Position numbers and translations under genes: made by a program. From contig CAIRHB010000033.1 of NCBI GenBank assembly GCA_903878285.1, forward strand, positions 1 through 40,117: a DNA stretch of 40,117 bases. The letters are read 5' to 3'. The stretch is from Candidatus Adlerbacteria bacterium. Lineage in GTDB: Bacteria > Patescibacteriota > Minisyncoccia > Phycocordibacterales > SBAW01. The notes beneath the pieces are model-generated. The model was not told the origin of the DNA. It was given only the letters and a program-made list of their open reading frames with translations, and ran no database searches. The first letter of the stretch is position 1. The number at the start of each line of letters is the position of its first letter. Positions 37,361 to 40,117 of this stretch are shown piece after piece.

Positions 37361-37782
37361 GCAGCGGTATGATGCTTCTCCTCTAACTTTTCGATATGTT
37401 CGAGCTCGGCGTCGATTTTGTCGATCTTGTTGAGTATATACTCGGTGGTCGCCTTTTCCGAGTGTACCTCGCGCTCGGTCTGCTCGGCAATGTGCTCCTC
37501 TTTCTCGACCAGTTTTTCCTCGCCGGATACATCCGCCAAGATCAACCGATCGCCCAAAAAGACTGATATCAAAAGCCCTGTGATAGTAAGGAGGACGGCG
37601 CCCGCGAGCACCGCGAGCGGCCCCCATAGGAGTGGCGTGAGTGACGCCGTTTCCCATACTCCCTTCCAAAACAGGACCACGCCCACACCCCCAACGAGCG
37701 CGTACGCCACCGGCCGCTTGGTGAGCCAGCCGCGTATCCGATCATCCCCTTTCCGAAAAAACCGCACCACACGTCGCAACAT
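37357..37782 (-). CDS. Hypothetical protein, two TMs plus charged coiled-coil tail
   Basis: Two hydrophobic segments then EEKLVEKEEHIAEQTEREVHSEKATTEYILNKIDKIDAELEHIEKLEEK. Confidence 0.65.
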   Translation of the reverse strand: MLRRVVRFFRKGDDRIRGWLTKRPVAYALVGGVGVVLFWKGVWETASLTPLLWGPLAVLAGAVLLTITGLLISVFLGDRLILADVSGEEKLVEKEEHIAEQTEREVHSEKATTEYILNKIDKIDAELEHIEKLEEKHHTAA

Positions 37783-37815
37783 GCTGCGTATTGTAGCATG
37801 GAATAGTGCAGTGCT

Positions 37816-38202
37816 TTATTTCCCCTCTATAGATTGTACGGACGATGCAACATATCGCTTTTTCTGCACCCACTGTTTTGTCGTCAAATCGTATTCTGCT
37901 AAATCTTCGCCCCAGTAGTAATCTGGGTAAAACGAATGGATGCGCATTGTTGCCGATGTGTTGCGTCCAAAATCACCACCTCTTTGAAATGTGCATAGAA
38001 AGGTCTTTCCTTGTTCATCCACTCCCGTAACCTCTAGCAATGAATGTATCCCTTGCTCATCAATAATTTCTCGCTCGACCTTTGGATTTTTGCAGAACTT
38101 CTCCAGCTCAGAAAGTATTTCAGCCCGCGACGGAGCATATTCCCAAATCGCCACCTCCTTTTTACCCGTCGGCTCCCTTCGCGGTGGTTTTTCCATAGAC
38201 AT
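37816..38202 (-). CDS. Hypothetical protein (128 aa)
   Basis: TATACT-N6-ATG start; MSMEKPPRREPTGKKEVAIWEYAPSRAEILSELEKFC. Confidence 0.65.
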   Translation of the reverse strand: MSMEKPPRREPTGKKEVAIWEYAPSRAEILSELEKFCKNPKVEREIIDEQGIHSLLEVTGVDEQGKTFLCTFQRGGDFGRNTSATMRIHSFYPDYYWGEDLAEYDLTTKQWVQKKRYVASSVQSIEGK

Positions 38203-38261
38203 AGCCCAAGTATACCGCATGTGCGGATGTACGCAGTTAGCAAGGCGTGTCTTACTCTTAC

Positions 38262-38290
38262 TTAGATATACCCCAGCCGGGTAAAGAGCG
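38262..38290. repeat. Direct repeat copy 1 (displaced NUDIX 3' end: encodes ALFTRLGYI* on minus)
   Basis: TTAGATATACCCCAGCCGGGTAAAGAGCG; 28/29 identical to 39171-39199. Confidence 0.9.
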
Positions 38291-38305
38291 CGCTATACTA
38301 TTTTC

Positions 38306-38692
38306 ATGTTGAAGCAGTTTTTGCAATGGATTCGACTCAAGCAGGTGCTGCACGAGAGCACCTACAAACCACCGCTGTTTAAAGAGGGCGAGATTTGGTG
38401 GTGCTCGATGGGAGAAAATATCGGCATTGAGACAAACGGCAAAGGCGAACGCTTTACTCGACCCGTGTATATTCTGCGTAAGTACGATAAATACACCTTT
38501 CTCGGGTTACCACTCACCACCAAAGGAAAAGTGGGTACCTGGTACTGCCCGATTGAGTTTAACGACAAAAAACAGACCATCGTGCTCGCTCAAGGTAGAA
38601 CATTTGATTATCGTCGACTCAAAAACCAAATGGGACATCTTGGTATACAAGACCGAGAAAAAATATGGAATGCGTACCGCGCACTGCACTAA
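38306..38692 (+). CDS. MazF/PemK-like toxin domain protein
   Basis: KEGEIWWCSMGENIGIETNGKGERFTRPVYILRKYDKYTFLGLPLTTK. Confidence 0.75.
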   Translation: MLKQFLQWIRLKQVLHESTYKPPLFKEGEIWWCSMGENIGIETNGKGERFTRPVYILRKYDKYTFLGLPLTTKGKVGTWYCPIEFNDKKQTIVLAQGRTFDYRRLKNQMGHLGIQDREKIWNAYRALH

Positions 38693-38933
38693 AAACATAG
38701 AACCCCCGCACATCGCGGGGGGCGTGGGTTTCCCCAAATACTCCTCTAGTATAGCACGACCACGTGCTGTGCAACAAGTACTCACACTCCACCGCCAAAC
38801 CGCGCGGGGCGCAATCTTGACCAAGCGGTCGATATCTTCTCGCGTCTCTTATCCCCAGAGATTTGTGTATCGCGGGTTGGCAGGGGCGAGTATAATCACC
38901 ACAGGTAAGAGTGCGTGGCAATTTTTGTCCAAC

Positions 38934-39036
38934 TAGGGAGAATACAGCGCGGGCGTAGCATATGTTGGAAATGCAATGCCCGTAGCAAGGTTTTGATGAC
39001 GGTTCGAATCCGTCCGCCCGCTCTGTATTCTCCTTA
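38934..39036 (+). ncRNA. tRNA-Gly-like RNA (core 38949-39022) inside an extended helix
   Basis: GCGGGCG/CGCCCGC acceptor, U73, GACGG-TTCGAAT-CCGTC T-arm, GCAT/ATGC D stem; flanks GGAGAATACAG/CTGTATTCTCC are complementary; anticodon arm does not fold canonically. Confidence 0.65.
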
Positions 39037-39170
39037 AATGAACAACTCTCGTATAATAATACTGCTGTTTTTCAACACTTTCGTTTTTGTTGTTTAGCTA
39101 TGTCTAGTGTCAGTGTATTACATACTCGGCGGTGTGTATATGGTAGATGTCCACATCCTCCATCTAGGTT

Positions 39171-39199
39171 TTAGATATACCCCAACCGGGTAAAGAGCG
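39171..39199. repeat. Direct repeat copy 2 (genuine 3' end of the NUDIX gene)
   Basis: TTAGATATACCCCAACCGGGTAAAGAGCG. Confidence 0.9.
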
Positions 39200-39629
39200 A
39201 GACGGAGGGCGGGGTGAGTTTGAGGTCGCGCAGCTCGGGCAAAGGAGACCAGCGGTACTCGCTAAACTCGCTCGGGTCGAGCGTGATTGCTACGTCGCTT
39301 GCAGGTTTGTCGAGCACTACTTTGTAGATTTTGAACTGCATTTTTGCCAACACACGCTCGCCCGTGTCCTTGAGTGTTTTTTCCGACTCGCCGCGACCGA
39401 CGTCGTCCACAAGTGTTATGTCGAACGGAGAAATGTCGATACCGAGCTCCTCGTTAACCTCGCGCACCAGCGCCTCTACAGGGTCCTCGCCCTGCTCGAT
39501 GCCGCCACCAGGGATATGCCAGCAGTCGAGATACACGCCGCCCTTGTTTGGATCTTTCATCGCTTGAAACAACTTCCCATCACTCGAAAAAATCAGTGCC
39601 GACACAATCTCCCGCTCGATGGTTCTCAT
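39171..39629 (-). CDS. NUDIX hydrolase
   Basis: NUDIX box GGGIEQGEDPVEALVREVNEELGID. Confidence 0.92.
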   Translation of the reverse strand: MRTIEREIVSALIFSSDGKLFQAMKDPNKGGVYLDCWHIPGGGIEQGEDPVEALVREVNEELGIDISPFDITLVDDVGRGESEKTLKDTGERVLAKMQFKIYKVVLDKPASDVAITLDPSEFSEYRWSPLPELRDLKLTPPSVSLFTRLGYI

Positions 39630-39749
39630 GTTTGAAATTATATCACAGAGATATACGCGGCCGCTTGCACAAACCAAGTGTTGGGTTTATTATATGTACA
39701 TCACCACGAAAAAGACCCTTGCGCGGGTTGGTCTGCGCCGGGGGCTTTT

Positions 39750-39980
39750 TTATTTCTGGGGACGGGATTTTCGCTCCAAAATAGACCGTTGTTCTTGTAT
39801 ATAGGCGATGCGTGCACCTGTTTTCTTTAACAACACCGAGCACTTTTCTGCTGGACTGGGAGACAAGATAACCTCAAGCCGACCCCGACTTTGCAAGAGT
39901 GTCACCAATGGAGCATAATCGCCATCACTCGCCACAAGCACCGCTTTCTCCAAACGACCTTCATAAAAATCCTGTGCCCG
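39750..39980 (-). pseudogene. NYN-domain (LabA/DUF88-like) C-terminal fragment
   Basis: DFYEGRLEKAVLVASDGDYAPLVTLLQSRGRLEVILSP…LLKKTGARIAYI; upstream part not open in this frame. Confidence 0.6.
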
Positions 39981-40117
39981 TGAATCTCAAAACTCCTCCA
40001 CTGTTCATTACAGCCACCAAACGCAAAAAGAGCACGTACAATAGAGTCAGTTACAAGCTAGCTCTTTTGCACTATGCCCTTGTTGCACACTCATCATATC
40101 GTCGATTTGTATTGCTG

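What the first reader, a model, noticed from the sequence alone, without database searches (positions are those of the whole stretch)
38934..39036. tRNA-Gly-like RNA with a non-decoding anticodon arm enclosed by an extra 14-bp helix
Seen: a 7-bp acceptor (GCGGGCG/CGCCCGC), U73, a canonical T-arm and a GG-containing D-arm. The segment between them (A-ATGCC-CGTAGCAA-GGTTT-TGAT) gives at best an 8-nt loop without U33 and a stem with a T·T mismatch. The flanks continue the helix (GGAGAATACAG/CTGTATTCTCC, plus G·T, A-T and T-A) across one C·T mismatch, giving about 21 pairs in total. A TATAAT lies at 38891-38896. Two internal segments resemble each other (GCGTAGCATATGTTGGA and CCGTAGCAAGGTTTTGA). 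Knowledge: G1-C72, C2-G71 and U73 are bacterial Gly identity elements, and C35/C36 are missing here. Inference: a non-decoding tRNA-like RNA, a tRNA mimic, or a decayed attachment-site tRNA.
Basis: partly seen in the sequence, partly recalled or inferred. Interest (0 to 1): 0.75.

Follow-up and report, generated by a model that had tools for sequence, protein, structure and literature searches.

The report
Non-decoding tRNA-shaped RNA in long hairpin
A small Patescibacteria genome carries a gene for an RNA that folds like a transfer RNA at the tip of a long hairpin but has no usable anticodon; its fold, though not its anticodon arm, is kept in a sister species, and many ordinary tRNA genes in the same phylum turn out to sit in similar hairpins.

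Summary
Window 38949-39022 matches the Rfam tRNA model (43.1 bits; the genome's other 42 accepted tRNAs score at least 50.7). A sister species in the same genus (Ca. Adlerbacteria) has it at the same locus. Four pairs changed on both sides and stayed paired; T-arm and D-arm determinants are kept, while substitutions cluster in the anticodon arm. That fits a folded, non-decoding RNA selected for shape better than a dead gene.

The Gly reading fails: this lineage's Gly tRNAs carry A73; U73 occurs in its Thr and Cys tRNAs. The enclosing helix is not unique. Covariance searches find over 150 candidate tRNAs in comparable long hairpins across the order (those inspected are ordinary, mostly Thr and Ile), and others across the phylum, often beside or inside broken copies of themselves. 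I found no description of this in the papers available.

Best reading: a former hairpin-enclosed tRNA kept as an RNA that presents the tRNA elbow. Function and expression are untested, and only two true homologues are known. Tests for an RNA antitoxin of the adjacent PemK, a Y RNA, or a phage/plasmid relic were negative.

The parts
38782..38896 (+). Upstream segment with the TATAAT (38891-38896); a near copy stands upstream of the B12-dependent ribonucleotide reductase gene in the sister genome, so this is probably a duplicated promoter region (inference)
   Evidence: second copy at G005:C13:8335-8449, 87% identical; sequence; downstream gene: ATP-cone, RNR_Alpha, RNR-II insertion domain
38925..38931 (+). 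5' arm of the outer helix TTGTCCA (pairs with 39039-39045; 6 of 7 pairs here, 7 of 7 in the sister species)
   Evidence: one pair changed on both sides (U-A to C-G), one C·A mismatch here is U-A in the sister
38934..38947 (+). 5' arm of the 14-bp flanking helix TAGGGAGAATACAG
   Evidence: 14 of 14 bases identical in the sister species
38949..38955 (+). acceptor stem, 5' strand GCGGGCG
   Evidence: two pairs changed on both sides in the sister
38958..38974 (+). D-arm GCAT-ATGTTGGAA-ATGC, with GG
38976..38993 (+). anticodon arm ATGCC-CGTAGCAA-GGTTT, 8-nt loop, non-decoding
   Evidence: sister ATGCG-CCTGGCAG-CGTGT, also 8-nt loop, last stem pair changed on both sides
38994..38997 (+). variable region TGAT
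38998..39014 (+). T-arm GACGG-TTCGAAT-CCGTC
   Evidence: identical in the sister
39015..39021 (+). acceptor stem, 3' strand CGCCCGC
39022..39022 (+). discriminator U73, opposite C38948 (U opposite U in the sister): unpaired in both
39023..39036 (+). 3' arm of the 14-bp flanking helix CTGTATTCTCCTTA; no encoded CCA
   Evidence: 13 of 14 identical in the sister; the one change gives A·C
39039..39045 (+). 3' arm of the outer helix TGAACAA; similarity between the two species ends here

Best explanation
The locus encodes a structured, non-decoding RNA: a tRNA cloverleaf at the tip of a long stem (7-bp acceptor + 14 bp + an outer 7-position helix). Shown: the anatomy, its presence at the same locus in a sister species, upkeep of pairing and of the elbow (T-arm, GG D-loop), and faster change of the anticodon arm. 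Shown for the wider group: many ordinary Patescibacteria tRNA genes are enclosed in the same way. Inferred: it descends from such a hairpin-enclosed tRNA that lost its anticodon and is kept because its elbow and stem are bound by a tRNA-handling protein (a maturation or modification enzyme, RNase P or a nuclease), so that it works as a tRNA mimic, decoy or scaffold, in the manner of the tRNA-like module of bacterial Y RNAs. Which protein is unknown.
For: Rfam tRNA match. Homologue in Ca. Adlerbacteria at the same locus between the PemK and NUDIX genes. Two acceptor pairs, one anticodon-stem pair and one outer-helix pair changed on both sides and stayed paired, and none did with the partner slid by 1-2 positions. 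Random placement of the same number of substitutions gives at least 3 such pairs in 0.14% of trials. The competing 5'-half hairpin has 8 of 8 pairs here but 6 of 8 in the sister. Substitutions are 7 of 22 in anticodon arm plus variable region against 2 of 37 in U8-A9, D-arm, 26 and T-arm (p 0.01). Upstream region alignable, leader 50%, element 82-100%, downstream 34% identical, so the element is a conserved unit. Covariance model R2 of enclosed tRNAs scores it 95.4 bits, among the best of about 400 genomes. It lacks the Ala pair G3·U70 and A73, and its discriminator does not match Gly of this lineage.
Against: Only two sequences, so the covariation count rests on a few events (25 of 500 shuffles reach it). 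Inverted repeats can also become matched by replication template switching, without selection on RNA. The tRNA-like part diverges faster than the neighbouring genes (13 of 73 against 67 of 1251). No expression data, no terminator found just after it, and no evidence for any partner protein. Descent from a hairpin-enclosed tRNA is by resemblance of architecture, not shown by intermediates.
Confidence: 0.45

Rival explanations
1. A decaying tRNA pseudogene with no function; the matched changes in its stems come from template switching between the arms of an inverted repeat.
For: Faster divergence than neighbouring genes and than 39 of 42 orthologous tRNAs; T·T mismatch and 8-nt loop; broken copies of tRNAs are common next to hairpin-enclosed tRNAs in this order; absent from the other 33 genomes searched in the genus.
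Against: The T-arm is unchanged and the D-arm changed only in two loop positions; a changed pair also occurs in the short anticodon stem, where template switching over an inverted repeat is less natural; no tRNA-like pair is lost between the two species.
Confidence: 0.3
2. A working but aberrant tRNA for Ala GCU/GCC codons, with U-(A/G)GC-A in an expanded 8-nt loop.
For: ARAGORN reads Ala(AGC); the sister loop CCTGGCAG contains U-GGC-A; no ordinary tRNA-Ala(GGC) was found in either genome.
Against: G3-C70 instead of the G3·U70 present in both other Ala tRNAs, and U73 instead of A73; many genus members without the element also show no Ala(GGC) match (listing truncated); ordinary tRNAs are mostly identical between the two species, this one differs at 13 of 73 positions; the 8-nt loop has no U at position 33.
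Confidence: 0.1
3. It acts at the DNA level: a palindrome or cruciform, or a remnant of integration at a tRNA gene.
For: 31-nt arms, 84% complementary; nested and broken tRNA copies around enclosed tRNAs elsewhere suggest recombination at such sites.
Against: No duplicated tRNA end within 2.4 kb, no phage or plasmid match; the neighbouring proteins scanned are PemK, NUDIX, enolase, pyruvate kinase or without a family match; conservation of T-loop and D-loop residues is unexplained by a palindrome.
Confidence: 0.1
4. An RNA antitoxin or decoy for the adjacent PemK/MazF-type toxin, which has no protein antitoxin upstream on its strand.
For: Adjacent in both species, 372 of 387 bases of pemK conserved, no upstream antitoxin frame on the same strand.
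Against: None of 29 other PemK loci examined has an enclosed tRNA-like RNA; the one other match is a plain tRNA-like stretch without the helix. A terminator-like hairpin separates the two.
Confidence: 0.05

Closest known systems
Hairpin-enclosed tRNA genes of Patescibacteria (set collected here; no published name found)
   Same: tRNA cloverleaf closed by a long helix continuing the acceptor stem; same phylum, and one Thr(CGT) example in the same genus (L167)
   Different: All the other enclosed cloverleaves inspected have normal anticodon arms; most pair base -1 with base 73 and many have broken tRNA copies in their flanks, neither of which holds here
Bacterial Y RNA (YrlA) with tRNA-like module
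   Same: tRNA-like module on a stem formed by the ends of the RNA (known from the literature, recalled)
   Different: No Ro60/TROVE gene in any of 35 genus genomes, and no YrlA match in Rfam even at E up to 10
Non-decoding tRNAs and tRNA pseudogenes of bacteria (for example the peptidoglycan-synthesis tRNA-Gly of staphylococci, recalled)
   Same: Cloverleaf kept while decoding is lost
   Different: Those keep an ordinary 7-nt loop and Gly identity; this has an 8-nt loop, a long flanking helix and no Gly identity of its own lineage
SpF41 streptococcal sRNA (Rfam RF02435)
   Same: tRNA-like T-arm and acceptor; best sub-threshold Rfam match (23.5 bits)
   Different: Far below its gathering score of 52; no shared flanking helix; not a member

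Membership tests
decoding tRNA | cloverleaf with acceptor, D-, anticodon and T-arm | tested here: met
   Rfam RF00005 43.1 bits, above gathering
decoding tRNA | 7-nt anticodon loop with U33 | tested here: not met
   8-nt loop in both species
decoding tRNA | sequence constraint like other tRNAs between the two species | tested here: not met
   13 of 73 differ; 29 of 42 ordinary orthologues identical, 39 of 42 below 12%
tRNA-Ala | G3·U70 pair and A73 | tested here: not met
   G3-C70 and U73; own Ala tRNAs have G3·U70 and A73
tRNA-Gly | discriminator and anticodon of Gly tRNAs of the lineage | tested here: not met
   all Gly tRNAs of both genomes have A73 and NCC anticodons; element U73 without NCC
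hairpin-enclosed tRNA set of Patescibacteria | helix of about 12 bp or more continuing the acceptor stem | tested here: met
   14 of 14 paired plus 6 of 7 in the outer helix; R2 95.4 bits
hairpin-enclosed tRNA set of Patescibacteria | pieces of the same tRNA in the flanks (24 of 37 loci) | tested here: not met
   none within 300 bp and no repeat in 37700-40117
bacterial Y RNA (YrlA) | Ro60/Rsr partner gene in the genome | tested here: not met
   TROVE absent from 35 of 35 genus genomes, control positive
bacterial Y RNA (YrlA) | match to the Rfam model | tested here: not met
   no match up to E 10
attachment-site tRNA remnant | duplicated tRNA 3' end and neighbouring integrase | tested here: not met
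   no such repeat; no integrase among the neighbouring proteins scanned
type III toxin-antitoxin RNA | association with the toxin family across genomes | tested here: not met
   0 of 29 other PemK loci has an enclosed RNA
expressed small RNA | transcript of the predicted length | not testable with these tools
   no RNA data held

The most novel reading that the evidence does not exclude
Patescibacteria carry an undescribed class of hairpin-enclosed tRNAs, and from it arose a non-decoding RNA that survives as a tRNA-elbow mimic binding a tRNA-handling protein.
Probability: 0.28. Interest if true: 0.75.

Novelty: new variant of a known kind. Interest (0 to 1): 0.55.

Why it matters
Non-decoding RNAs with tRNA shape are few and informative, because they show which part of a tRNA its partner proteins need. 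Here the elbow is kept and the anticodon arm is free to change, which makes a direct prediction for binding tests. The wider set, ordinary tRNA genes locked in long hairpins and sometimes nested inside broken copies of themselves across reduced Patescibacteria genomes, raises a testable question about how these tRNAs are cut out of their precursors and how such structures arise.

Tried and rejected
Glycine tRNA: own Gly tRNAs have A73. Y RNA: no Ro60 gene, no Rfam match. RNA antitoxin of PemK: no association at 29 other PemK loci. Phage or plasmid origin: no similarity. Replacement of a missing tRNA-Ala(GGC): Ala(GGC) matches are patchy across the genus, and the element lacks Ala identity. Further homologues downstream of NUDIX orthologues in three more genus members: none. 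A scan of a genome collection with a D-arm pattern returned the known sister contig plus two contigs from other phyla that I take as chance and did not follow. Tandem origin of the anticodon arm from the D-arm: resemblance weaker in the sister species. Four scans of viral contigs gave no answer from the machine, so that collection is untested. Flanking helix at tRNA-Leu(CAA) of this genome: not kept in the sister.

Full report
What is there. The window lies in a 0.93-Mb genome of 44 contigs. The nearest relative with the element is in the same genus and carries the title Candidatus Adlerbacteria, a group of the Patescibacteria (recalled). At 38949-39022 on the plus strand stands a cloverleaf that reaches the Rfam tRNA model at 43.1 bits; the other 42 tRNA matches accepted in this genome score 50.7 or more. 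The anticodon loop has 8 nt, and the stem has a T·T mismatch. The acceptor is continued, across a C·T mismatch, by 14 bp, and after a 2-nt internal loop by a further helix of 7 positions. Of the 43 tRNA-like genes scored in this genome only this element and tRNA-Leu(CAA) have a clear flanking helix, and the latter is not kept in the sister genome.

Is it conserved? A model of the element and its homologue finds only one other strong match in 35 genomes of the genus: G005:C13:9134-9240, 128.3 bits. The neighbours are the same (pemK before, NUDIX after, enolase further off). Identity by segment is 88% upstream, 50% in the leader, 100% and 93% in the 14-nt arms, 82% in the cloverleaf and 34% beyond the outer helix. 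The element is thus a conserved unit with defined ends. Of 42 pairs, four changed on both sides and stayed paired: two in the acceptor, one in the anticodon stem, one in the outer helix. Sliding the partners gives none at shifts of 1-2 and one at +3. Random placement of the observed number of substitutions gives three or more compensated pairs in 0.14% of trials for the inner 35 pairs. The column-shuffle control is less striking (25 of 500), as expected with two sequences. A competing hairpin of the 5' half, favoured by the centroid of the isolated cloverleaf, keeps 6 of its 8 pairs in the sister.

Where it changes. The T-arm is identical, and the D-arm differs at two loop positions; U8, the first A of the D-loop, GG and TTCGAAT are kept. 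The anticodon arm and variable region hold 7 of 13 substitutions in 22 positions, against 2 in the 37 positions of the elbow parts (p 0.01). The element as a whole changes faster than neighbouring genes and than 39 of 42 orthologous tRNAs, 29 of which are identical. This is what one expects if the shape and elbow matter and decoding does not. It is not proof: replication template switching can match the arms of an inverted repeat without selection.

Identity. In both genomes the Gly tRNAs carry A73, and U73 is found in Thr and Cys tRNAs. Ala is suggested by U-(A/G)GC-A in the loop and by the lack of an ordinary Ala(GGC) gene in both assemblies, but the element has neither G3·U70 nor A73, and Ala(GGC) matches are patchy in the genus (the listing was truncated). 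The element's best similarity to any tRNA of its genome scores 65, where ordinary tRNAs have a median best score of 93.

The wider set. Searching 397 genomes of the order with the element's model returned, besides the element, 15 tRNAs in other genera that are not homologues but are also enclosed by long helices continuing the acceptor stem. A model built from these and the element (R2) finds more than 150 full-length matches above about 79 bits in the order, and matches at E up to 1e-20 in 37 of 384 genomes drawn from the phylum. Those inspected are mostly Thr and Ile tRNAs with normal anticodons (also Lys, Gln, Gly, Leu, Pro); for the remaining matches the isotype and anticodon were not read. 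The model was built to find the helix, so its pairing is partly by selection. Independent of the model, pairing continues outward beyond its ends (51% against about 38% expected), and other tRNAs at the same loci lack the helix. In 24 of 37 loci inspected, pieces of the same tRNA recur within 300 bp. In L125, L159 and L162 the enclosed tRNA stands between the 5' and 3' parts of a broken copy of itself. I found no account of this in the papers searched, which excludes most subscription journals. No non-Patescibacteria control could be run, so confinement to the phylum is not shown.

Reading. The element shares the enclosing helix but differs in lacking a decoding arm, in keeping base 73 unpaired, and in lacking tRNA pieces in its flanks. 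I read it as a former enclosed tRNA kept as a non-decoding RNA. The segment before it, including the TATAAT, recurs upstream of the B12-dependent ribonucleotide reductase gene of the sister genome, so it probably has a promoter of its own by duplication (inference; the consensus scan did not flag it). What it binds is unknown. An elbow-binding protein is the most economical guess.

Confidence. That it is a real, conserved, tRNA-shaped and non-decoding element: high. That selection acts on the RNA: moderate. The proposed mimic function: low to moderate.

Noticed in passing
L111-L119, L123-L128, L151-L173, L209-L216: Many ordinary tRNA genes (mostly Thr and Ile) in this order and phylum are enclosed by 12-30 bp helices continuing the acceptor stem; 24 of 37 loci inspected also hold pieces of the same tRNA in their flanks.
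   Followed up: partly
L125, L159, L162 (also L115-L117, L127): tRNA-in-tRNA arrangement: the enclosed tRNA stands between the 5' and 3' parts of a broken copy of the same tRNA, with further small hairpins inserted in the broken copies.
   Followed up: partly
L111, L113, L114, L116: The 3' arm of the enclosing helix runs into a stretch of T, so the enclosed tRNA may double as a transcription terminator.
   Followed up: no
window 38782-38896: Segment duplicated in the sister genome upstream of the B12-dependent ribonucleotide reductase gene; contains a dyad CCACAGAAATTTGTGT there that could be an NrdR box (recalled motif, untested).
   Followed up: partly
window 38306-38692: PemK/MazF-type gene, strongly conserved, without an upstream antitoxin frame on its strand; the family is present in 94 of 297 genomes of the order, three copies in this genome.
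   Followed up: partly
L038 (tRNA-Leu CAA of this genome): 12 of 14 flanking positions pair around this ordinary tRNA, not kept in the sister genome L131.
   Followed up: yes
window 38262-38290 and 39171-39199: 29-bp direct repeat, 97% identical, one copy covering the 3' end of the NUDIX gene; also repeated in the sister genome.
   Followed up: no
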